NCBI RefSeq assembly: GCF_900129785.1
Contig: NZ_FSRC01000002.1
Coordinates: 1,054,001 to 1,118,000 of the forward strand
Source of the DNA: Algoriphagus halophilus
Lineage (GTDB): Bacteria > Bacteroidota > Bacteroidia > Cytophagales > Cyclobacteriaceae
DNA: 64,000 nucleotides
Direction: 5' to 3'
Shown here: positions 1-8,546 of the stretch, piece after piece
How positions within the stretch are numbered: the stretch's first letter is position 1
Layout of the letters: every line of letters starts with the position of its first letter
Program-made: the position numbers and the translations under genes
The notes under the pieces: generated by a model
The model's database searches: none
The model's input: only the letters and a program-made list of their open reading frames with translations
Told to the model about the DNA's origin: nothing

Positions 1-773
1 GGAAAAATGAGTTTTTGTCCTGGTATGAGCTTTCTGAAATTCCCAAGTTTATTGGCTTTTGCTACCTCCAGGTAATATTCTTGGGTTCCATAGATTCGCT
101 GACACATCAGTAATAAGGTATCGCCGGATTTGACCACGCGCTCATGGGTAAGATCTGGGGAATTTCGGGCAGTAGTAGCTGCTTGTTCTTGTCTCGAGAG
201 CGATTGGTCAAAGTTGGCACTGACGGTAGCCCGTATCGGTAAACCAGAACTATCAAAAAGCTTGTAGTTGATGGTAGCTGAAGCTAATACCCCACGAAAT
301 TGATAGGCGCCCCAATTGATTTGAAGGTAATTGGGCTTATGAGTATCAGATTGGATGTTTTGAGTAATGTCCAAGAATTTCCGAATGGCTCGATCTACAT
401 GTTTGTCTTCATTGATCAAGTCAATGGCATTGATTTTATTCGAACTGATCTGATCCAAATTCGGAGCATCATCTCCCAAATAATCAAAATTGGTTTCACC
501 AGATTTATCGGCACTTGGAGGTGAAGCTGCGGTAGCATCAAAAAGAAATTCAAAAGCAACAGAGTCGGATTCTAAGGTTCTGAATTGGTATTGCTTGCCA
601 TCTGCAGGCCCCTCTTCAGGAATCCATTTAGACTTAAATTCCTGGCTAAAAGTAGTAGGGTTATACATCACCACATAAGTCGCAGTGGCTTCATTAAATT
701 CCTCATCCTTAAATGCGGTAATTTTTAGTTTTTCTAACCCTCCTTTTTGGGAAAATATATCTGAAAGTGCCAT
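1..773 (-). CDS. LysM-containing eCIS baseplate/tube adaptor (Afp7/Pvc7-like), 3' end cut by window edge
   Basis: The reading frame starts at the ATG complementary to 771-773 and is open to the window edge (257 codons visible). The N-terminal two thirds match the family that sits between tube and spike in contractile injection systems. The last ~45 residues form a LysM motif (VKSGDTLLLMCQRIYG, then a YYLEVAKANKL segment and PGQKLIFP), which normally closes the protein, so only a few residues should be missing. In Afp/PVC-type systems this protein binds the tube initiator and holds the spike; the role here is inferred from family and gene order. It follows the DUF5908 gene by 13 nt and is probably in the same operon. 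A phage LysM tail protein is the alternative, but the neighbours favour an eCIS. Confidence 0.85.
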   Translation of the reverse strand, partial: MALSDIFSQKGGLEKLKITAFKDEEFNEATATYVVMYNPTTFSQEFKSKWIPEEGPADGKQYQFRTLESDSVAFEFLFDATAASPPSADKSGETNFDYLGDDAPNLDQISSNKINAIDLINEDKHVDRAIRKFLDITQNIQSDTHKPNYLQINWGAYQFRGVLASATINYKLFDSSGLPIRATVSANFDQSLSRQEQAATTARNSPDLTHERVVKSGDTLLLMCQRIYGTQEYYLEVAKANKLGNFRKLIPGQKLIF

Positions 774-786
774 TTGGTCTCTCTTA

Positions 787-942
787 TTATCGTTCGTTTT
801 TCTCTTTTATGAGCTTGTTTAATACCTGGATTCCATCAAGAATCGCGGTAGGATCTGGCTTTTTTTCACCTCTTCCTGTGGGTTTGCTTTCTGCAGCATC
901 TACTGTTGTGCGAATGATGAGTTCTTTGATTTCTATGGGCAT
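787..942 (-). CDS. DUF5908 family small eCIS protein (51 aa)
   Basis: A 51-codon frame opens with MPIEIKELIIRT and ends NKLIKEKNER. This matches the DUF5908 pattern of very short proteins found in contractile injection system loci of Bacteroidota. It has no signal peptide or membrane segment; a short N-terminal strand is followed by a charged, probably helical tail. Its ATG lies 3 nt after the stop of the tube-initiator gene and its stop is 13 nt before the LysM adaptor gene, so it is embedded in the operon. The molecular role is unknown; position suggests a small linker or stabiliser near the tube initiator or baseplate. Confidence 0.75.
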   Translation of the reverse strand: MPIEIKELIIRTTVDAAESKPTGRGEKKPDPTAILDGIQVLNKLIKEKNER

Positions 943-945
943 GTT

Positions 946-1416
946 TTAAGGCAATAAATCGTCTGGATTAATTCGTCGATAATATTGATAAGCGAATTCT
1001 ATGTTTTCGATGACAATGGTATTTTCCATTGCATTCAATCCCTCAATAGACCATTTGACGGGCCAGGCGTTTACAAAATTCCAAGCTTGTAAGGGGACTC
1101 TATCCGGATTGAGAAGAATGACTGTGATATCTTGAGCCTCGAACTGAAAACCTTCCACGCTGTCCTTAAACCATTTGGCAAGTTGAGAGCTTACTGCCAT
1201 CCCTCTTTTCAACACCAAATTGGGATAGGAGACGGGGTTAGGCATTCGATGTTTGAACCTGTTTTCGCCGCCTTCTGCGTATTCTTCCACTCCAATTTCC
1301 ACGTCCAAACCTGAAACCTCTTGGAATCCCAAATCAGGTATAGCAGGATATTTCAACAATAGTCCTTCGAATCGGACTAAAAAGTGAAAGCCGGTAGGTG
1401 GATGAAAGATCGTCAT
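946..1416 (-). CDS. eCIS tube-initiator / second tail-tube protein (Afp5-like)
   Basis: A 156-aa member of the phage tail tube family (T4 gp19 / conserved phage-tail region type). Landmarks are GFHFLVRFEG near the start, FQEVSGLDVEIGVEEYAEGG around residue 35, the strand pair PNLVLKRGMAVSSQLAKWF, and an INPDDLLP tail. It is a distant paralogue of the adjacent 144-aa tube protein, sharing the FxEVSGL...LKRG pattern. Afp/PVC loci encode a major tube protein followed by a variant that starts the tube on the baseplate; the longer C-terminus and the position next to the LysM adaptor suit the initiator. It starts 4 nt after the stop of the tube gene, which implies an operon. Confidence 0.82.
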   Translation of the reverse strand: MTIFHPPTGFHFLVRFEGLLLKYPAIPDLGFQEVSGLDVEIGVEEYAEGGENRFKHRMPNPVSYPNLVLKRGMAVSSQLAKWFKDSVEGFQFEAQDITVILLNPDRVPLQAWNFVNAWPVKWSIEGLNAMENTIVIENIEFAYQYYRRINPDDLLP

Positions 1417-1420
1417 CAGC

Positions 1421-1855
1421 TTATGGCGTTTCTATGGCAAGCCCTTCATGACAAAGCTCAATGCTTTCCACTGCTACCTCATTTCCGGTGGAGTTCAAGG
1501 ATGGTCCTTCTACTTTACAAGGCCAAGCTTCTTTCACTTTCCAGACCATTACAGGCTCATGTTCTTCATTCAATAAGCTAATAGTCAGATCTCTTCTTTC
1601 AATGTTGTTCATTTTTACCGTGTTCAACCATTGAAAAAACTCGTTGTCTGCCCTGAAGATCCCACGCTTCAACGTGATGTTGGAGTATTGGGGGATACCT
1701 GGCATTTTACTGACATGATACTCAAGAGAGCTACCTTCTCTGTAATCGATACTCTGTAGCTCCACTGTCAGTCCTGATACTTCTGTGAAGCCGATTCTTG
1801 TACCGCCCCATTCTACCTGAAAATGGAAGACGGAAACTGGATATGCTACTGCCAT
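1421..1855 (-). CDS. eCIS major inner-tube protein (Afp1-like)
   Basis: A 144-aa protein of the contractile-tail tube family. It begins MAVAYPVSVFHFQVEW, continues with FTEVSGLTVELQSIDYREGS and ITLKRGIFRADNEFFQWL, and ends in a beta strand carrying NEVAVESIELCHEGL. This is the usual length and layout of Hcp/gp19-fold tube subunits, which stack as hexamers to make the rigid tube expelled on sheath contraction. The gene lies 39 nt downstream of a sheath gene. Assignment as the major tube rather than the initiator rests on its shorter length and gene order. Confidence 0.85.
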   Translation of the reverse strand: MAVAYPVSVFHFQVEWGGTRIGFTEVSGLTVELQSIDYREGSSLEYHVSKMPGIPQYSNITLKRGIFRADNEFFQWLNTVKMNNIERRDLTISLLNEEHEPVMVWKVKEAWPCKVEGPSLNSTGNEVAVESIELCHEGLAIETP

Positions 1856-1894
1856 AATTTGATAATTTTAAGTTTGTAGTTCTGGTTTATACAA

Positions 1895-3382
1895 TTAGGA
1901 TTCCTGGAGCTTATGAGAGAATTTCAGGATGATGAATTCTGCAGGTCTGACAGCGGCCATCCCTATTTCAATAATCAACCTGCCTTCAAGTATGTCTTGG
2001 GCGGACATGGTTTGGCCTAAACCTACTTTGACAAAAAATGCCTGCTCGGGTTTTGCTCCTGCGAGGGCTCCATCTCTCCAAAGTTTGGATAGGAAATTTT
2101 CGATCATGGTTTTGGTACGCAGCCAAGTATTGGCATCGTTCGGTTCAAACACCACGAATTCGGTGGCCTTTTTGACCGACTCTTCAATGAAAATATAGAG
2201 CCTTCTGACAGGTACATATTTCCATTCATTATCATTTCCAGCAAGGGTTCTTGCTCCCCAAACCAAGGTTCCTTTTCCTGTAAATGTTCGAATGGCATTA
2301 ATGGATTTACCTGAAGTAGCATCGACATTTAAATTTGCCTGCTGTTCATGGGATACCTTTTTAGAAGGGCTGATGATCGATCTAACATCCACATTTGCAG
2401 GAGCTTTCCAAACTCCTCGTTGACTGTCTACACGTGCATAAATTCCAGCAATTGCTCCCGAAGGAGGAAGTGTTATATAGCTTTTATTTATTTCAGCTAT
2501 GACACTTCTGTAAAGACTGGGTTCATTTTTTAGGACACTTGGATCCGCATCATTGGAGGCTTCCAAGGGTAAAGTATCTTGTGCGCCTGCTTCTATTAAT
2601 ACCGGATCTGAAGGATAGGTGGAAGTATGTGTTATGGTTAATGCAGTCGGATCATAGGCGTAATTCAATGAACTTTTCAAATTGGGGTAATAAGCCGCCC
2701 CATACTTGAGATTGGAGGAACCGATGCAGTTACTTCTAAAATTAGTGGCATCGTCAAAAGGATCGGAAGTGACATCCTTTACATCGATGATCACGAATCT
2801 GTCTTTGAGGAGTTCACATTGTGCCAATGCTGCATCATAAATATCTTTATAAACTGTACCGGTGGTTTCAGGAAGTGTTGCTTCGATCACATCTGGGAAA
2901 ACATATAAGGTAGGTTCATCAATGGCTTTGAGTGCTTCAAGCCCGCCCAGGATACTAGTTGCAGTTGCCGAATCTCCTTTGGCAGGTAGGTTATTAAAGT
3001 CGTTGACCGATACGATGTAGCATGGTCCCCCGCCATTGTTGTAATACATCTGAAGACAGTAATACAATTTATATGGGCTCGGATCTGGAGGAGGTGTTGC
3101 CGTTATTTTCCTATTGATAAGTTTTTCAGTGGTTCCTTTTTCCGCATCATAGGTATCCTCAACTGTGATGGTGAAGGTTTCGGGGTTTGCTTTTCCGAAG
3201 ATTGCTTCGAATTCCAGCATGCTGGTTATCCTTGTTGGTACTCCTCTTACACTTTCTCCGTCTTTTTCTGCAGTTGCAGTGTGACCAATAAATGCGGGAA
3301 TTGCTGTTTCAACCGCTGCTATTGAGGCAGGTAATGTGGAGATTTCTTGGATATAAACACCGGGTGTAGATTGACTTGCCAT
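1895..3382 (-). CDS. eCIS contractile sheath protein, short form (495 aa)
   Basis: Sheath family, with the N-terminal signature TPGVYIQEISTLPASIAAVE and an NNGGGPCYIVSV segment typical of phage and eCIS sheaths. The C-terminal ~170 residues (from GKSINAIRTF through VWGARTLAGN to IILKFSHKLQES) are nearly identical to the upstream paralogue at 3408-5135. This C-terminal part makes the inner domain and handshake that links neighbouring subunits. The middle (roughly residues 230-300) is shorter and diverges. Having two sheath genes in tandem is normal for Afp/PVC-type systems. The two copies differ at many third codon positions, so the duplication is old and held by protein-level selection. Confidence 0.92.
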   Translation of the reverse strand: MASQSTPGVYIQEISTLPASIAAVETAIPAFIGHTATAEKDGESVRGVPTRITSMLEFEAIFGKANPETFTITVEDTYDAEKGTTEKLINRKITATPPPDPSPYKLYYCLQMYYNNGGGPCYIVSVNDFNNLPAKGDSATATSILGGLEALKAIDEPTLYVFPDVIEATLPETTGTVYKDIYDAALAQCELLKDRFVIIDVKDVTSDPFDDATNFRSNCIGSSNLKYGAAYYPNLKSSLNYAYDPTALTITHTSTYPSDPVLIEAGAQDTLPLEASNDADPSVLKNEPSLYRSVIAEINKSYITLPPSGAIAGIYARVDSQRGVWKAPANVDVRSIISPSKKVSHEQQANLNVDATSGKSINAIRTFTGKGTLVWGARTLAGNDNEWKYVPVRRLYIFIEESVKKATEFVVFEPNDANTWLRTKTMIENFLSKLWRDGALAGAKPEQAFFVKVGLGQTMSAQDILEGRLIIEIGMAAVRPAEFIILKFSHKLQES

Positions 3383-3407
3383 TGTTAAATTGATTTAAAT
3401 AGTTTGA

Positions 3408-5135
3408 TTAGGATTCCTGAAGCTTATGAGAGAATTTCAGGATGATGAATTCTGCCGGTCTCACTGCCGCCATACCGATTTCCACGATTAACCTTCCTTC
3501 CAAAATATCCACTGGAGTCATGGTTTGACCTAAGCCCACTTTTACAAAAAATGCGTCTTCTGGTTTAGCACCTGCAAGAGCTCCATCCCTCCAAAGGTTG
3601 CTTAAGAAGTTCTCGATCATGGTTTTCACACGAAGCCAGGTTTTAGAGTCATTGGGCTCGAATACCACGAATTCAGTGGCTTTCTTGACCGATTCTTCCA
3701 CAAAAATGTAGAGCCTTCTTACTGGGATATATTTCCATTCGTTGTCATTTCCAGCCAAGGTTCGCGCTCCCCAGACCAGGTTTCCTTTCCCTTGGAAAAA
3801 TCGGATAGCATTGATGGATTTTCCTGAAGTGGCGTCGACATTTAATAATCCTTGGTCTTCTGCACTTACCGCAATTACAGGCTTAATCACGCCAGCAACA
3901 TCTACATTGGCTGGAGCCTTCCACACCCCTCTTTGTCTATCTACTCTTGCATAAATTCCAGCAATAGAGGCAGAAGGATAAAGTTCCATTTTCTTAGATT
4001 GGAGCTTGCTCACTATTAAATTGTAAAGTGTTTTGTCTGGAGCTTGCCAGGAGAAAGTTCCGGATCCGGAAATTACTGCACCTCCATCACCATTATCATC
4101 GTAGGTAAGTGGGATTAGCCCTCCATCCGACCCAGGAGTTTTAGCTGTAAGTGTAAGCGTATCACCATCCCTGCTCACAGAAAAATCGGAATCTCCAGCT
4201 AATGCTGTCTCTAATGCAGCTGCAGTTGTGGCATTTCCTGCCCCTTTTGTAAAATCCACTCCCTCTGTATAAGCGGTGGTTCCTACCGTAAAAATATCTC
4301 CATCTATAGCAGCATTGTTATTGATTCGAATAGTAGCCGTAGCAAAGGCATCTCCATTTCCCAGGGCTAATAAACTTTTTTCATGGAATGGGCCTAAGCC
4401 AGCACCTCCTCTATTATCTGTAATCTGTAAGGCACTTTCCGAATAGTAATTATACAGTGACGTTTTGAGAGAGGGATAATAAGCTGCTCCATATTTTAGG
4501 TCACTGGTACCTACCTCGGCTCGAAATGAATCCCCATCTTCTTTGACACTTTGACTTCCATAGTGTAAAGCATCCATTACTGCGAAGCGGTCTTGCAATT
4601 TTGAACATTGGGCCAACAAGGTTTCATGGATCGTTTTTCTATCCACATTGCTTAGAATCACAGCCTCTGGTACAACCAAGATGGTGGGTTCATCCTCTTC
4701 CTCTAATACTTTGATTCCCGCGATCAAATCTGTCGGAGAAATGGAAGTTGCTGGTGGATTTGGACCTGCTACAAATCCTCCTACTGAAACGATGTAGCAA
4801 GGACCACCTCCATTATTGAAGTACTGGTAGATCTGGTAGGTCATACGATAAGGAGAAAAACTACTAGGAGGGTTAATGGTCACTTCAGTATTTCCATCTG
4901 CGTCCAATGCCAAGGTTACCCCATAATCTTCGGGGTAAGATTCTCCAAAAATCTCTTTGTATTCCAGGTAAGAACTAACTCTTACCGGTGTATTGACGGG
5001 GAGGGATTCTCCATTTTTAATTCGTGTAGCTGTGTAGCCGACAAATGCCGGGATGGCCGTTGCCACGGGGGCTATCGATGCGGGAAGGGTTGATATTTCC
5101 TGAATATAAACCCCAGGGGTTTTGTAGTCTGCCAT
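3408..5135 (-). CDS. eCIS contractile sheath protein, long form with inserted domain (575 aa)
   Basis: It shares the sheath N-terminus (KTPGVYIQEISTLPASIAPV) and the same C-terminal core as the 495-aa paralogue. Between about residues 255 and 365 it carries extra sequence: a beta-rich segment with TATIRINNNAAIDGDIFTVG, TTAAALETALAGD and SRDGDTLTLTAK. That pattern is common in small add-on domains of phage structural proteins and is absent from the shorter sheath. It should lie on the outer surface of the contractile sheath (inferred). The start is 14 nt after the stop of the 374-aa gene. Whether long and short forms build different zones of one particle cannot be told from sequence. Confidence 0.92.
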   Translation of the reverse strand: MADYKTPGVYIQEISTLPASIAPVATAIPAFVGYTATRIKNGESLPVNTPVRVSSYLEYKEIFGESYPEDYGVTLALDADGNTEVTINPPSSFSPYRMTYQIYQYFNNGGGPCYIVSVGGFVAGPNPPATSISPTDLIAGIKVLEEEDEPTILVVPEAVILSNVDRKTIHETLLAQCSKLQDRFAVMDALHYGSQSVKEDGDSFRAEVGTSDLKYGAAYYPSLKTSLYNYYSESALQITDNRGGAGLGPFHEKSLLALGNGDAFATATIRINNNAAIDGDIFTVGTTAYTEGVDFTKGAGNATTAAALETALAGDSDFSVSRDGDTLTLTAKTPGSDGGLIPLTYDDNGDGGAVISGSGTFSWQAPDKTLYNLIVSKLQSKKMELYPSASIAGIYARVDRQRGVWKAPANVDVAGVIKPVIAVSAEDQGLLNVDATSGKSINAIRFFQGKGNLVWGARTLAGNDNEWKYIPVRRLYIFVEESVKKATEFVVFEPNDSKTWLRVKTMIENFLSNLWRDGALAGAKPEDAFFVKVGLGQTMTPVDILEGRLIVEIGMAAVRPAEFIILKFSHKLQES

Positions 5136-5149
5136 ATTCGGATTATTTG

Positions 5150-6274
5150 CTAGATGAATACATAAATTTCAGTGTTTAAATCTGCTCCAATCTTTTTGGT
5201 GGGAGCGGCTCTCGAAGGATTGGGAAGATCAGCTACCAAAACTTTGGAACCCGGGTTTTCTACCAGCCGAAGGCTGAGTTTTGGGGTTTCAAAAAAGGGT
5301 ATTTCCACTTGGGATCGAAAAACGACCGTTTCCCTATTGTTTATTTTGATATCGGTACTGGGACTATCTCCAACTTGATCGAATTGATAGGTGGAATAAG
5401 GAGGTGGAAGGTCAGCATCCACATCTTCTATTTCTAATGTTTTGGAAAGTAGATCAACCTTTTGATTCCCATTGACAATTAAATAAGTCCACCGGCTTTT
5501 TTGGCTTGGAATGGTCAATCGGTAATGCTCTTTGGAACCATACAAATTGGAAGGTGCATTCACATATTCCAAACGAATCAATCCCAATGGGCTAGCAGGT
5601 TCATTTCCTACCCAATAAGTTTTGCTCCACAGGTCGGTAGTATTTCCAGCATCTCTCAAAGTGAACGTATAAATACCTTCTGCTTTTCCTCTTAAATCAA
5701 AAGTGAACCGTATTTTTCCTTGGTCATCAGGGGCAATTTCAAAAAGATCAGGTAAGGGTAACCCATTTTCATCTTTTCCAGGCGATACTACCTGAGTAAG
5801 GTCCTTCCTAACTTTGATCCTTACAGATGGAGGGAATGGTTCCAATGTGAGCTCTATTCCGAAAGCTTTGGCCCTTAAGCCATCCAGTAAATCATAGCTT
5901 AAATTTTCCGGACTTGATTCATCCGAAGAGGCATTTGCAGGAACATTGAAGAAAAAGGGAAGTTTACCAGAGGAATAGAGATTACTTCCGTCATCCAAAT
6001 CAGAAATTTGAAGAAAGTCGGCGGGATTTTTAGGCTGAAAGAAAAAATAAAAGGATACAGGTTGTGTAAGAGGAGAAATCGGAGTGGTTTCGTCTTCTTC
6101 TGCTCTGTAAAGTAAGATCATTCCACCTTGGAACTGACGAAAAATGATTTTCCCATTTTGGAATATTCTTGAAGTTTCTTCAGAGGGCCATAAGACCAAA
6201 TCTCTGGCAACCCCATCTTTAAAATATTCATGGCGAAGTGCTACTTCGCCTAGGCGAGAGTAGATAATGCTCAT
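5150..6274 (-). CDS. Unrecognised eCIS-locus protein between cap and sheath genes (374 aa); candidate cap adaptor
   Basis: I do not recognise a named domain. The protein has no signal peptide or membrane segment and looks beta-rich. An N-terminal part around residues 1-100 has the strand-like FQGGMILLYRAEED and VSFYFFFQPKNPADFLQI. A middle beta-sandwich-like part includes FTFDLRGKAEGIYTFTLRDA, and the protein ends TEIYVFI. Its ATG overlaps the stop of the DUF4255 gene by 4 nt (ATGA), so translation of the two is probably coupled, and the long sheath gene follows at 14 nt. A cap adaptor has been described in the Algoriphagus eCIS (AlgoCIS), and this position fits such a role. That is inference from order and coupling, not a recognised motif. 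Confidence 0.6.
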   Translation of the reverse strand: MSIIYSRLGEVALRHEYFKDGVARDLVLWPSEETSRIFQNGKIIFRQFQGGMILLYRAEEDETTPISPLTQPVSFYFFFQPKNPADFLQISDLDDGSNLYSSGKLPFFFNVPANASSDESSPENLSYDLLDGLRAKAFGIELTLEPFPPSVRIKVRKDLTQVVSPGKDENGLPLPDLFEIAPDDQGKIRFTFDLRGKAEGIYTFTLRDAGNTTDLWSKTYWVGNEPASPLGLIRLEYVNAPSNLYGSKEHYRLTIPSQKSRWTYLIVNGNQKVDLLSKTLEIEDVDADLPPPYSTYQFDQVGDSPSTDIKINNRETVVFRSQVEIPFFETPKLSLRLVENPGSKVLVADLPNPSRAAPTKKIGADLNTEIYVFI

Positions 6275-6891
6275 GACTTATGTAGGGTATCAAGGTGAAT
6301 TTTTTCGATTGGATCTCCACTTTCCTGAATTGCGTTTTCTTGAACTCGGATTGTTTTGACCTTATATAAGACAGAGGGGAGATATTTTGCTCCTACTACA
6401 GTCCAAAAGTTATATAATTGTTCAAATGAATAACTGTATAGCTCCACTACGAGTTTGGATAAGCCTGGGTCTATTCCAGCTAGTCGTGGGCTATTTTCTT
6501 TTGTAAAAACATTTTTTGCCTGAAAAAAAGAAATGGCATACCCCAATTGTTTTAAACCTTCTACATAATCATCAGATGAGTCATTCTGCTTTTTGTTTTG
6601 AAAATTAGCAGTGATCAAGACATATAGGTTTAGCTGGATGTCCGGGTTGCGTTTTTCAACTTTTCCAACCGAATTGATAAAGGTGCTTTTTTGCTCTTTT
6701 AAAGTTCGCTCCTCTTCAATATTGATTAAAGAAAGTCCAAGACTTTTATCAGGAATAATAATTCCGTTTTCATTGGTTACAGAAGATAGAAAAATCCGAT
6801 CTCCATTGGTATCACCTACCGTATCACCCACCTTTAATTTGATAAAGGCGTTTAGTTCCTGCGTCAAAAATTCTAATGCCGAATAAATCAT
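6271..6891 (-). CDS. DUF4255 (Pvc16 N-terminal domain) protein, eCIS cap/terminator
   Basis: A 206-aa protein beginning MIYSALEFLTQELNAFIKLK, with NIEEERTLKEQ about 80 residues in, PDIQLNLYVLITANF in the middle, and YSFEQLYNFWTVVGAKYLPS near the C-terminus. This is the usual profile of DUF4255/Pvc16_N, the family of Afp16/PVC16 cap proteins that end tube and sheath growth in eCIS particles. It is the first structural gene after a predicted promoter at 6950-6981 and overlaps the next gene by 4 nt. The cap role comes from family knowledge; the assignment itself is firm. Confidence 0.88.
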   Translation of the reverse strand: MIYSALEFLTQELNAFIKLKVGDTVGDTNGDRIFLSSVTNENGIIIPDKSLGLSLINIEEERTLKEQKSTFINSVGKVEKRNPDIQLNLYVLITANFQNKKQNDSSDDYVEGLKQLGYAISFFQAKNVFTKENSPRLAGIDPGLSKLVVELYSYSFEQLYNFWTVVGAKYLPSVLYKVKTIRVQENAIQESGDPIEKIHLDTLHKS

Positions 6892-6949
6892 ATTAAAAAA
6901 ATGAAAAACTTAAAAGGGTACTAAAAGGTACTACTTGCAGGATAGGCAG

Positions 6950-6981
6950 CAAAGGAATGTTTTACTGAAAAATGACTCAAA
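6950..6981 (-). promoter_or_regulatory. Predicted promoter of the eCIS structural operon
   Basis: On the minus strand, TTTG (complement of 6978-6981) is followed after exactly 20 nt by TTCCTTTG (complement of 6950-6957). This resembles the Bacteroidota sigma-factor consensus TTTG / TAnnTTTG with one mismatch in the -7 box. The transcript would begin near 6943, about 50 nt before the DUF4255 ATG. The leader holds a near-perfect tandem repeat (AAAAGGGTACT / AAAAGGTACT on the plus strand, 6912-6932). Confidence 0.45.
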
Positions 6982-7023
6982 AAATTATCCTATTTATTAA
7001 ATAAAAAACTACTAATCAGTATG

Positions 7024-8469
7024 TTAGTAATTACTAATAATTTCTTTTTGACGAAATGTGCTGGTGAATGCTTGAGAATTTTTGGGTTGAGAATCAGTAG
7101 TAAATAGATGTGAAATCCAACGATGATATGGAATTAATTCATAGGTACCAGGTTGCCATGAAAAGGAATCTTTTGCAGACTGAAGAAGCTGAAAATGTGT
7201 ATGATTTTCCAATCGTTCTGAAAAACAATCGGGATTTGTCTTTTGCAGTAATTGCAGGCAATTGAAAAAGGATTTGATACGACAATTCACTTTACCTTTT
7301 AAAGAATAAAGGGTTTTACGAAAACTCTCTAATTTAAATTCTACCCAATCCCACTCATTTTTTTCTATTAAAATCATGATTTCAAGAAGTTTGGATCCAA
7401 GATAGAATTCAGGTATTCCTTTCAGATTCCTTTGACATTCATGGTTAAGGATAAGGGAGTCTTCCAAATCCCCTTCTTGAAATAATAGAAATGATTCAAA
7501 ATATTGCCAGGTGTTTTTCTTATAGACTTTTTTCTGGCGGGCTAGCTTCAATAAAATTTGTTTGGCAACCTTGGTCTTTTTCAAATAAAAAGAGGCAAAC
7601 CATTCATTTTTATAAACTTCTGATTTTGCATCCATAGGAAGCTCTTTGATGAGTAAGGTTCTTTGGCAATTTTGGATCAGTTCTTCGAATGCCCCATATT
7701 TTAAAAGTACCTGCTGCTGGGTTAAATTAAGCTTCCATATCATTTCAGGTTGATGGATAGAAGGATAAGAATATAAGATACTTTCTGCCTTTTGGATAGC
7801 CTCTGAAGCTAAAGAGATCTGATTATGTTCTAGGAATTCTTCAGTTTTCTCCAAAAGGTTAAGTACCTCATTATTGGATTCAGTTTGTAATACTGATTTT
7901 CTAACTGAGATGAATTTGGATTTTTGAATCTCTTTTTCTGTATGATCTGTATGGAAGGTCAGTTCCAATTGCTTGCATAAAGCATTTTTTAATCGCTGCA
8001 GTTCTTCTTGATCAATGGGCTCTGCTACCCCTGCAGATCTGGCAGTTTCATGTACACATAGAATTAAGTCAGTATATCCTTGATTTCCAGCTAAATAAAG
8101 AGCCTTTTTTAGAGCTTTCACCCCTTCCTTTTCTAAACTCAGATTAAAAAACTGTTCTGCCTTCATGACCAATTCTACCACTTGGGCGCGTAGCCGGTCT
8201 TTTTTTTGAAATTGATTTTTTTTAACCAATCCTATAATGGAAAGAAGTTCTTCTGTCAGTCTTTTTTTTAATTGGGCGAAAGCCGGAAGATTGGATTTTT
8301 GATATAAGAGTTTAGCGTACTCTTGATCCGGCAAATGAGGGAAATCGATCATCAATTTTAGAAGTCGATATTTCTTTGAATTTGGAGCGTTATTTACTGA
8401 AATGTATTGCAAAAATTTGTTCTTCTCGGAAGAAGAACAAGATTCCAGCAACTGGAAAATTGTACCCAT
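7024..8469 (-). CDS. Unrecognised helical (possibly TPR-like) protein at the head of the eCIS locus (481 aa)
   Basis: I do not recognise a named family. The protein is lysine- and leucine-rich with no signal peptide or membrane segment. It appears almost entirely alpha-helical, with repeated amphipathic segments such as ALKKALYLAGNQGYTDL, LASEAIQKAESILYSYPS and YFESFLLFQEGDLEDSL, which suggests a superhelical TPR-type scaffold. It opens with MGTIFQLLESCSSSEKNKF. It has its own predicted promoter (8515-8546) and is separated from the DUF4255 gene by 132 nt containing a second promoter, so it may be transcribed on its own. A regulatory or assembly-helper role for the injection system is possible but rests only on location. 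Confidence 0.6.
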   Translation of the reverse strand: MGTIFQLLESCSSSEKNKFLQYISVNNAPNSKKYRLLKLMIDFPHLPDQEYAKLLYQKSNLPAFAQLKKRLTEELLSIIGLVKKNQFQKKDRLRAQVVELVMKAEQFFNLSLEKEGVKALKKALYLAGNQGYTDLILCVHETARSAGVAEPIDQEELQRLKNALCKQLELTFHTDHTEKEIQKSKFISVRKSVLQTESNNEVLNLLEKTEEFLEHNQISLASEAIQKAESILYSYPSIHQPEMIWKLNLTQQQVLLKYGAFEELIQNCQRTLLIKELPMDAKSEVYKNEWFASFYLKKTKVAKQILLKLARQKKVYKKNTWQYFESFLLFQEGDLEDSLILNHECQRNLKGIPEFYLGSKLLEIMILIEKNEWDWVEFKLESFRKTLYSLKGKVNCRIKSFFNCLQLLQKTNPDCFSERLENHTHFQLLQSAKDSFSWQPGTYELIPYHRWISHLFTTDSQPKNSQAFTSTFRQKEIISNY

Positions 8470-8514
8470 AAAAAGTAGGTTTATTGAAAAGTGATCGATG
8501 AAAAGTAGTAGTAT

Positions 8515-8546
8515 TAAAAATACACTTCATCTCATTGAATGTCAAA
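8515..8546 (-). promoter_or_regulatory. Predicted promoter of the 481-aa gene
   Basis: On the minus strand TTTG (complement of 8543-8546) and TATTTTTA (complement of 8515-8522) are separated by exactly 20 nt. This is one mismatch from the Bacteroidota TTTG / TAnnTTTG promoter and has the same spacing as the promoter at 6950-6981. The short leader to the ATG at 8469 contains three AAAAGT-type repeats (plus strand 8471-8478, 8487-8493, 8501-8508). Confidence 0.5.

What the first reader, a model, noticed from the sequence alone, without database searches (positions are those of the whole stretch)
1..8546. Upstream half of an extracellular contractile injection system
Cap (DUF4255), two sheaths, tube, tube-initiator, DUF5908 and LysM adaptor follow one another on the minus strand with spacings of 3-39 nt or overlaps. 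This order is that of Afp/PVC/AlgoCIS-type particles, not of a T6SS (no TssB/C) or a phage (no capsid, terminase, portal or integrase in view). Cargo, spike and baseplate lie outside the window. Algoriphagus machipongonensis is known to make such a particle, and gene content suggests a relative.
Basis: partly seen in the sequence, partly recalled or inferred. Interest (0 to 1): 0.75.

Follow-up and report, generated by a model that had tools for sequence, protein, structure and literature searches.

The report
Two-sheath contractile injector in Algoriphagus
The window holds the cap-to-hub half of a complete phage-tail-like protein syringe of an already described kind, loaded with a likely DNA/RNA-cutting effector; comparing its relatives also turned up lone sheath genes, kept without any syringe, for which I found no explanation.

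Summary
Confirmed. Window 1-6891 encodes, on the minus strand, cap, cap adaptor, two sheaths, two tube proteins, DUF5908 and a LysM hub adaptor. The same genome continues leftwards with spike, PAAR, gp25, two baseplate wedge proteins, an Alg19-like fibre, tape measure, AAA ATPase and a 1315-aa eCIS_core cargo with an endonuclease-like domain and a ComEA-type helix-hairpin-helix. Ten ORFs scanned on both sides gave no phage head or packaging family. It is an AlgoCIS-like eCIS of Algoriphagus in the two-sheath layout already published for Bacteroidales (BIS architecture 1), but not the AlgoCIS locus itself.

Differences from AlgoCIS: two sheaths; no cysteine at the Alg11 firing-disulfide positions (0 of 21 loci); a fast-evolving TPR-like gene upstream, found in the 22 two-sheath genomes of 72 and, apart from one decayed copy, in none of the rest; cargo genes that swap between near-identical loci.

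Most novel by-product: 16 of 72 Algoriphagus genomes have a sheath but no tube gene. The 13 near-complete ones also lack gp25. Thirteen lone sheaths share one chromosomal place; the two measurable close pairs give dN/dS 0.125 and 0.144. This suggests a sheath function without a syringe.

The parts
6271..6891 (-). cap (Pvc16_N / DUF4255, Alg16A-like), 206 aa
   Evidence: PF14065 E 9.4e-31; genome-wide hit G000:C2:1060304-1060870
5150..6274 (-). cap adaptor (Alg16B-like), 374 aa
   Evidence: only PDB match 7adz Alg16B, E 7.2e-5; same place in 21 of 21 loci compared (window's own and 20 relatives), 41-97% pairwise
3408..5135 (-). sheath 1, 575 aa, with a long insert relative to sheath 2
   Evidence: PF17482; AlgoCIS sheath chain E 2e-129; alignment
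1895..3382 (-). sheath 2, 495 aa
   Evidence: PF17482, PF04984; 78% identical to sheath 1 over the C-terminal 209 residues, 47% over the N-terminal part
1421..1855 (-). inner tube protein 1, 144 aa
   Evidence: PF06841 E 8.6e-49; 91-100% pairwise in 21 loci
946..1416 (-). tube protein 2 / probable tube initiator, 156 aa
   Evidence: PF06841 E 9.6e-41; the initiator role is recalled from AFP/PVC, not tested
787..942 (-). DUF5908 protein, 51 aa
   Evidence: PF19265 E 5.4e-09
1..773 (-). LysM hub/tube adaptor (Afp7/Alg7-like), cut by the window edge; 263 aa in the genome
   Evidence: PF19266 E 7.3e-43; L003:17982-18773
7024..8469 (-). TPR-like protein of unknown function, 481 aa, tied to this eCIS lineage
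   Evidence: present in the 22 two-sheath genomes, decayed in G028, no match in the other 49 of 72; weak SRP_TPR_like matches in 10 of 22 members, none in the window's own copy
6892..7023 (-). 132-nt intergenic stretch before cap, likely operon promoter
   Evidence: inferred; a TCCT core aligns in 22 of 22 upstream regions, one MAFFT alignment, no control

Best explanation
This is the distal half of a complete two-sheath extracellular contractile injection system of the AlgoCIS/BIS type. Shown by sequence: a full gene set, conserved order, and vertical inheritance of the structural genes together. Inferred from solved relatives: tube 1 polymerises on a tube-initiator/LysM/VgrG/PAAR hub to a length set by the tape measure; sheath 1 and sheath 2, which share the C-terminal core and the terminal arms, form the sheath around it; cap and cap adaptor close it. 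Alg19-like fibres bind a target, the wedge opens, the sheath contracts, and the tube with its eCIS_core-nuclease cargo is driven in. The cargo most likely cuts nucleic acid and holds it through its C-terminal helix-hairpin-helix. Release of the particle from the cell, the target and toxicity are inferred, not shown.
For: Gene families; PDB matches to AlgoCIS sheath, cap adaptor, Alg11, Alg12 and (by length and entry) Alg19 chains; 21 syntenic full loci, the window's own included, plus one truncated by a contig end, in 72 genomes of the genus; identity matrices of the other structural genes correlate with that of sheath 2 at r 0.67-0.97; AlgoCIS itself was seen free in the cytoplasm and in supernatants and filled with DUF4157 cargo (PMC8894135, part 1 of the results section and the cargo section).
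Against: No expression or particle data. Baseplate and fibre chains match the thylakoid-anchored Anabaena system as well or better (AlgoCIS v. Anabaena bits: Afp11 474.0 v. 475.6; Afp12 365.1 v. 442.7; fibre 141.7 v. 156.2). The cysteines of the Alg11 disulfide needed for AlgoCIS firing are absent, so that firing step cannot be copied from AlgoCIS. The endonuclease match is only just above cut-off (27.6 v. 27 bits), and of eight cargoes of this lineage scanned it passes in three, falls short in one and is missing in four.
Confidence: 0.85

Rival explanations
1. A contractile system that works from inside or on the producing cell (membrane- or envelope-anchored, like Anabaena tCIS or T6SSiv), not a released particle.
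For: Afp12 and fibre score higher against Anabaena tCIS than against AlgoCIS chains; Afp12 is 1415 aa, near tCIS Cis12 (1335) and far from Alg12 (933).
Against: Of the Cis12 stretch absent from AFP (residues 610-1100 in PMC8894136, passages seen) only the first 80 residues fall in a matched stretch; about 700-1150 has no significant match, and the extra 901-1236 segment here aligns to neither chain. Every gene between gp25 and the ATPase has another assignment, so none is left for the Cis13 membrane fibre, though no search with Cis13 was made. A crude hydropathy scan finds no stretch over threshold in cap, cap adaptor, sheaths, tubes, adaptor, spike, Afp12 or fibre; one marginal stretch in Afp11 and one in the tape measure.
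Confidence: 0.1
2. A tailocin or prophage remnant.
For: Homologous tail parts; the beta-lactamase-family ORF next to the cargo matches a PHROG called minor tail protein with lysin activity, through its beta-lactamase domain.
Against: Cap, CIS tape measure, AAA ATPase and eCIS_core cargo present; no head or packaging family in the ten ORFs scanned; chromosomal neighbours eutBC, rbfA, FtsX; same upstream neighbours in the relatives.
Confidence: 0.02
3. Sheath 1 and sheath 2 are redundant duplicates with no division of labour.
For: 78% identity in the C-terminal core and near-identical terminal arms.
Against: One old duplication with no sign of gene conversion: paralogues in one genome are hardly more alike than across genomes (N part 46.5 v. 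46.4%, C core 79.1 v. 77.7%); both kept in 22 of 22 genomes; the sheath-1 clade also holds first sheaths of Bacteroidota MAGs outside the genus.
Confidence: 0.2

Closest known systems
AlgoCIS of Algoriphagus machipongonensis (clade Ib eCIS)
   Same: cap, cap adaptor, sheath, two tube genes, LysM adaptor, spike, PAAR, gp25, Alg11/12 wedge, Alg19-type fibre, tape measure, AAA ATPase, eCIS_core cargo
   Different: two sheaths not one; cap adaptor 374 v. 284 aa; Afp12 1415 v. 933; fibre 1215 v. 1443; ATPase before the cargo, not after; one 1315-aa cargo, not two; no Alg11 C268/C1000; TPR-like gene upstream
Bacteroidales injection system (BIS) architecture 1 (PMC7394362)
   Same: two sheaths, two tubes, LysM, baseplate, ATPase, DUF4157 gene (passages)
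   Different: BIS sequences were not compared here; BIS has extra hypothetical genes between baseplate genes
Anabaena thylakoid-anchored CIS (tCIS)
   Same: Afp11, Afp12 and fibre homology
   Different: no gene left over for Cis13 and no match to most of the Cis12 extension
AFP/PVC (clade Ia)
   Same: overall gene set; several sheath proteins (Afp2-4, Pvc2-4)
   Different: short 206-aa cap plus a separate cap adaptor, against 293-295-aa caps of PVC/AFP; lower sheath and Afp11 scores

Membership tests
eCIS (Afp/PVC/AlgoCIS superfamily) | tube, sheath, cap DUF4255, spike, PAAR, gp25, baseplate, AAA, DUF4157/eCIS_core in one cluster | tested here: met
eCIS (Afp/PVC/AlgoCIS superfamily) | no capsid, portal, terminase | tested here: met
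   none in 10 of 10 ORFs scanned around the locus; tail-only gene set
eCIS (Afp/PVC/AlgoCIS superfamily) | particle released from the cell | not testable with these tools
   needs microscopy
AlgoCIS-like clade Ib | separate cap adaptor Alg16B | tested here: met
   E 7.2e-5 over residues 26-107
AlgoCIS-like clade Ib | Alg19-type fibre | tested here: met
   residues 2-636 to chain 9wt0_a (1443 aa), E 1.7e-40; the chain is taken as Alg19 from its length
AlgoCIS-like clade Ib | Alg11 cage-iris disulfide C268-C1000 (needed for AlgoCIS firing, PMC13314943 passages) | tested here: not met
   Cys at either column in 0 of 21 loci; a feature of AlgoCIS itself, not known to define the clade
AlgoCIS-like clade Ib | sheath placement in a full eCIS tree | tested here: inconclusive
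   26-row tree, 6 of 23 inner branches open; no AFP, PVC or MAC rows
BIS architecture 1 | two sheath and two tube genes in one cluster | tested here: met
BIS architecture 1 | orthology to B. cellulosilyticus genes | not tested
   those sequences were not fetched
T6SS (TssB/TssC) | split sheath TssB/TssC | tested here: not met
   single-chain PF17482 sheaths
thylakoid-anchored tCIS | Cis12 extension (610-1100) | tested here: not met
   only 610-689 lies in a matched stretch
thylakoid-anchored tCIS | Cis13 membrane fibre | tested here: inconclusive
   no unassigned gene between gp25 and ATPase; no sequence search with Cis13

The most novel reading that the evidence does not exclude
Contractile sheath proteins of this family have a second, tube-independent life. 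In Algoriphagus a lone sheath gene is kept at one conserved chromosomal place, mostly in genomes without tube or gp25 and under purifying selection in the pairs that can be measured, and one genome (G028) kept only sheath 2 of the window's operon after losing the rest. The lone protein may self-assemble into empty sheath tubes inside the cell, as recombinant phage sheaths do.
Probability: 0.4. Interest if true: 0.7.

Novelty: new member of a known kind. Interest (0 to 1): 0.36.

Why it matters
It adds a complete two-sheath eCIS with 21 syntenic relatives (20 full loci, one truncated) in a genus where a close system has a solved structure and a genetically tractable host (passage). Three things become testable: what a second sheath does, how firing works without the AlgoCIS disulfide, and what the tied TPR-like gene is for. 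If the lone sheaths are functional, a motor part would have been reused without its injector.

Tried and rejected
Gene conversion between the two sheaths: rejected. Co-inheritance of TPR-like gene, tape measure and cargo alleles as one module: not supported (identity correlations tpr-cargo 0.22, tmp-cargo 0.16, tpr-tmp 0.57). tCIS-like anchoring: most of the Cis12 extension not matched. G028's lone sheath 2 as proof of selection: only suggestive. Its dN/dS against G006 is 0.141/1.329, about 0.11, against 0.041/1.168, about 0.035, for G006-G010; a neutral simulation with my estimate of the excess substitutions leaves the frame open in 0.9-2.1% of runs, 7-12% with about half as many, 20-25% with about a third. 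Recent loss with relaxed selection fits too. A lone-sheath family spread over the whole order: not supported; in an even sample of 154 genomes 49 of 53 sheath-bearing genomes also have a tube, the exceptions being two Algoriphagus (G009, G016), G191 (530 contigs) and G174, which has gp25 on another contig. Three named loci outside the genus (L041, L043, L048) have a sheath alone in their stretch; L043's genome has one tube gene elsewhere. A conserved partner gene for lone sheaths: none found; neighbours vary. Naming the TPR-like protein: no Pfam, NCBIfam or PHROG match for the window's copy. The 14-genome control rang in E. coli, B. subtilis and Synechococcus, so PF17482 alone does not mark eCIS; the flanks of the fetched loci do. 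By-eye counts from printed tables: adjacent sheath pairs, sheath-plus/tube-minus genomes.

Rows dropped: three lone sheaths (G014, G045, L048) fell out by a text filter, 19 of 22 used, and only the 16 closest of 171 pairs were printed, eight of them with saturated dS; the same kind of filter lost L042, L046, L051 and the second sheaths of L016, L031 and L035, 26 rows used; G034 and G036 were not fetched and, like G046, not in the gp25 search; G024 is left out of the 21-locus matrices because its contig ends at sheath 2. In one search L042's sheath 2 is in pieces.
Full report
1. Observation. The genes are there. One search lists intact minus-strand ORFs and names them: cap (PF14065), sheaths (PF17482), tube proteins (PF06841), DUF5908 and the LysM/CIS_tube adaptor (PF19266). 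Gaps are 3 to 39 nt with one 4-nt overlap. The 374-aa gene between cap and sheath 1 has no Pfam match, but its single PDB match is the AlgoCIS cap adaptor Alg16B.

2. The rest of the locus. The window is G000:C2:1054001-1118000. The 21 kb to the left hold, in order, a 584-aa spike (Phage_base_V), PAAR, gp25, a 1121-aa and a 1415-aa wedge protein, a 1215-aa fibre, the CIS tape measure (PF19268, 1.5e-96), an AAA ATPase and a 1315-aa eCIS_core protein. The 1121-aa and 1415-aa proteins match Alg11/Cis11 and Alg12/Cis12 chains; the fibre matches Anabaena All3314 (Cis19) and a 1443-aa chain of 9wt0 that I take to be Alg19 from its length. The next genes are a beta-lactamase-family protein, EutB, EutC and a permease; on the other side are a 462-aa ORF without a Pfam match, RbfA and an FtsX-type permease. 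PHROGs gave no head or packaging family among ten ORFs, one of them the TPR-like gene; the beta-lactamase-family protein matched a 'minor tail protein with lysin activity' profile (phrog_382) over its beta-lactamase domain.

3. Whose it is. The closest named loci for sheath 2 are seven Algoriphagus loci (69-84%, L007-L012 and L060). A. machipongonensis is, by protein lengths, G021: its cap (197), cap adaptor (284), sheath (692), Alg11 (1050), Alg12 (933) and fibre (1443) have the lengths of the published chains. Its locus has one sheath and other neighbours, so the window's system is a separate lineage in the same genus. The same genome has a second CIS on C1 (cap, one sheath, two tubes, 1418-aa tape measure, GH18-domain protein, ATPase, eCIS_core protein); Geller et al. 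already list Algoriphagus among genera with more than one eCIS operon (PMC8213781, passages).

4. Two sheaths. 22 of 72 genomes have the adjacent pair. N parts of the paralogues are about 46% alike, C cores 79%; trees of the 22 pairs keep sheath 1 and sheath 2 apart and paralogues of one genome are hardly closer than across genomes. In a 26-row tree the sheath-1 branch also takes in first sheaths of four Bacteroidota MAGs outside the genus, one Bacteroidales and one Prolixibacteraceae among them (100/100), so the duplication looks older than the genus; the sheath-2 side is not resolved. Of 54 named loci, 12 show both a sheath-1-like and a sheath-2-like gene and four more (L035, L038, L039, L040) have two sheaths of another arrangement. 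Two sheaths plus two tubes is already in print as BIS architecture 1 (PMC7394362, passages), and PVC/AFP have several sheath proteins (PMC8894135, passage). So the pair is not new. That the two co-assemble is inference from their shared arms and core.

5. Firing. AlgoCIS Alg11 needs a C268-C1000 bond to fire on cells (PMC13314943, passages). In 21 loci of this lineage (the window's and 20 relatives) neither column has a cysteine; G000 has none between residues 6 and 407; cysteines at 5, 1043, 1098 and 1100 of G000 are kept in 21 of 21, 408 in 19. Alignment near Alg11 residue 1000 is loose. Cage-to-iris coupling must therefore differ here.

6. TPR-like gene. The ORF at 7024-8469 has no Pfam, NCBIfam or PHROG match of its own; 10 of 22 homologues match SRP_TPR_like weakly. 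A search of 5.8 billion proteins, scoring the 7990 candidates sharing most words, gave 18 hits, the protein itself included. In 72 genomes it is present in the 22 two-sheath genomes, in G028 as a 101-residue stretch with six stops, and without a match in the other 49 (three of the 22 matches run over one stop, yet their ORFs are 455-459 aa). Shared descent contributes to that pattern. Its pairwise identity runs from 27 to 99% (median 39%) where sheath 2 has 66-97%; G068 differs from G048 and G071 (47%) although their sheaths 2 are 94-97% alike. A regulator or loading helper is my guess.

7. Cargo. The window genome's cargo has eCIS_core (105.5 bits), an Endonuclea_NS_2 match (27.6 bits, cut-off 27) and a ComEA-type HHH; hydropathy shows two strongly hydrophobic stretches before the nuclease part. 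Of eight cargoes scanned, the endonuclease passes cut-off in three (G000, G006, G019), falls short in G010 and is missing in four. Seventeen of 21 cargoes share a GHLL(N/S) motif in their last 300 residues, G023 has another end, and G015, G042 and G071 carry a different cargo with a 288-290-aa TPR protein 3-5 nt downstream. G071's cargo is 33% like those of G048 and G068 although their sheaths 2 are 94-97% alike: cargo is swapped in place. The nuclease-end relatives in the protein database (22 hits) are named, where an organism is given, as Algoriphagus or Aquiflexum. Only about 100 nt separate the window genome's cargo from the next gene, so no immunity gene lies directly downstream; Geller et al. 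report that many tested effectors lack one (passage). Target unknown. MACs also inject a nuclease effector.

8. Tape measure. Length is 509-528 aa in 21 loci at a median identity of 33%, as expected if length matters more than sequence.

9. Lone sheaths. In 72 genomes 51 have PF17482 but 35 PF06841, so 16 have a sheath and no tube. Thirteen of these are at least 99% complete and none of the 13 has gp25, while G000 and G021 ring. Twenty loci were fetched; 19 carry a sheath as the only gene similar to the window genome's two CIS loci, the twentieth (G029) is an ordinary CIS. Thirteen share one place, between a GH3 gene and an aldose-1-epimerase gene with up to several genes interposed (Pfam run on G009's copies); G046 shows one side only, and G045 also has a sheath and two tubes elsewhere. 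dN/dS is 0.144 and 0.125 for the two pairs with dS under 1; six further printed pairs give 0.08-0.13 with dS over 1.8 and eight are saturated. The terminal arms are recognisable by eye in most of the 19 rows. Three paper searches (terms orphan sheath, solitary sheath, polysheath or without tube) listed no paper on such genes; that library lacks most subscription journals. Phage sheath gp053 self-assembles into tubes without other viral proteins (PMC6357053, abstract in the listings).

10. Verdict. An ordinary but complete eCIS of a known kind; the by-products, lone sheaths first, carry most of the interest.

Noticed in passing
L118-L135 and L137 (G009, G011, G014, G016-G018, G025, G030, G031, G035, G045, G046, G051, G052, and extra copies in G010, G020, G021, G070, G071): Lone sheath genes without tube or other CIS genes nearby; 13 at one conserved chromosomal place in Algoriphagus.
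   Followed up: partly
L115:8540-10006 (G028): Sheath 2 of this operon kept alone with an open frame; in the 40-kb stretch no other locus-A gene is found but a decayed TPR-like fragment.
   Followed up: partly
L005 and L006 (G000:C1:2246858-2272164): Second CIS in the same genome: single sheath, 1418-aa tape measure with a long internal insertion, GH18-domain protein at the end, ATPase and eCIS_core gene on the other side of the cap.
   Followed up: partly
L096:12388-13257, L110:7165-8028: A 288-290-aa TPR protein directly follows the alternative cargo in three genomes; immunity protein or loading partner.
   Followed up: no
L081 and L086 (G026, G067): No PAAR gene: only 24-25 nt between spike and gp25, against 274-284 nt with PAAR in the other 19 of 21 loci.
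   Followed up: no
window 6892-7023 and homologous stretches: TCCT core and an ATACCTT-like block aligned upstream of cap in 22 genomes; possible promoter or operator.
   Followed up: no
L041:8071-11365: Lone sheath in an Ignavibacteria MAG next to a Tle1-like phospholipase and a CHAP/peptidoglycan-binding protein.
   Followed up: no
downstream of cargo in the 21 loci: Genes after the cargo differ widely between genomes while the upstream side (about 408-aa and 460-aa ORFs) is shared by nearly all.
   Followed up: no
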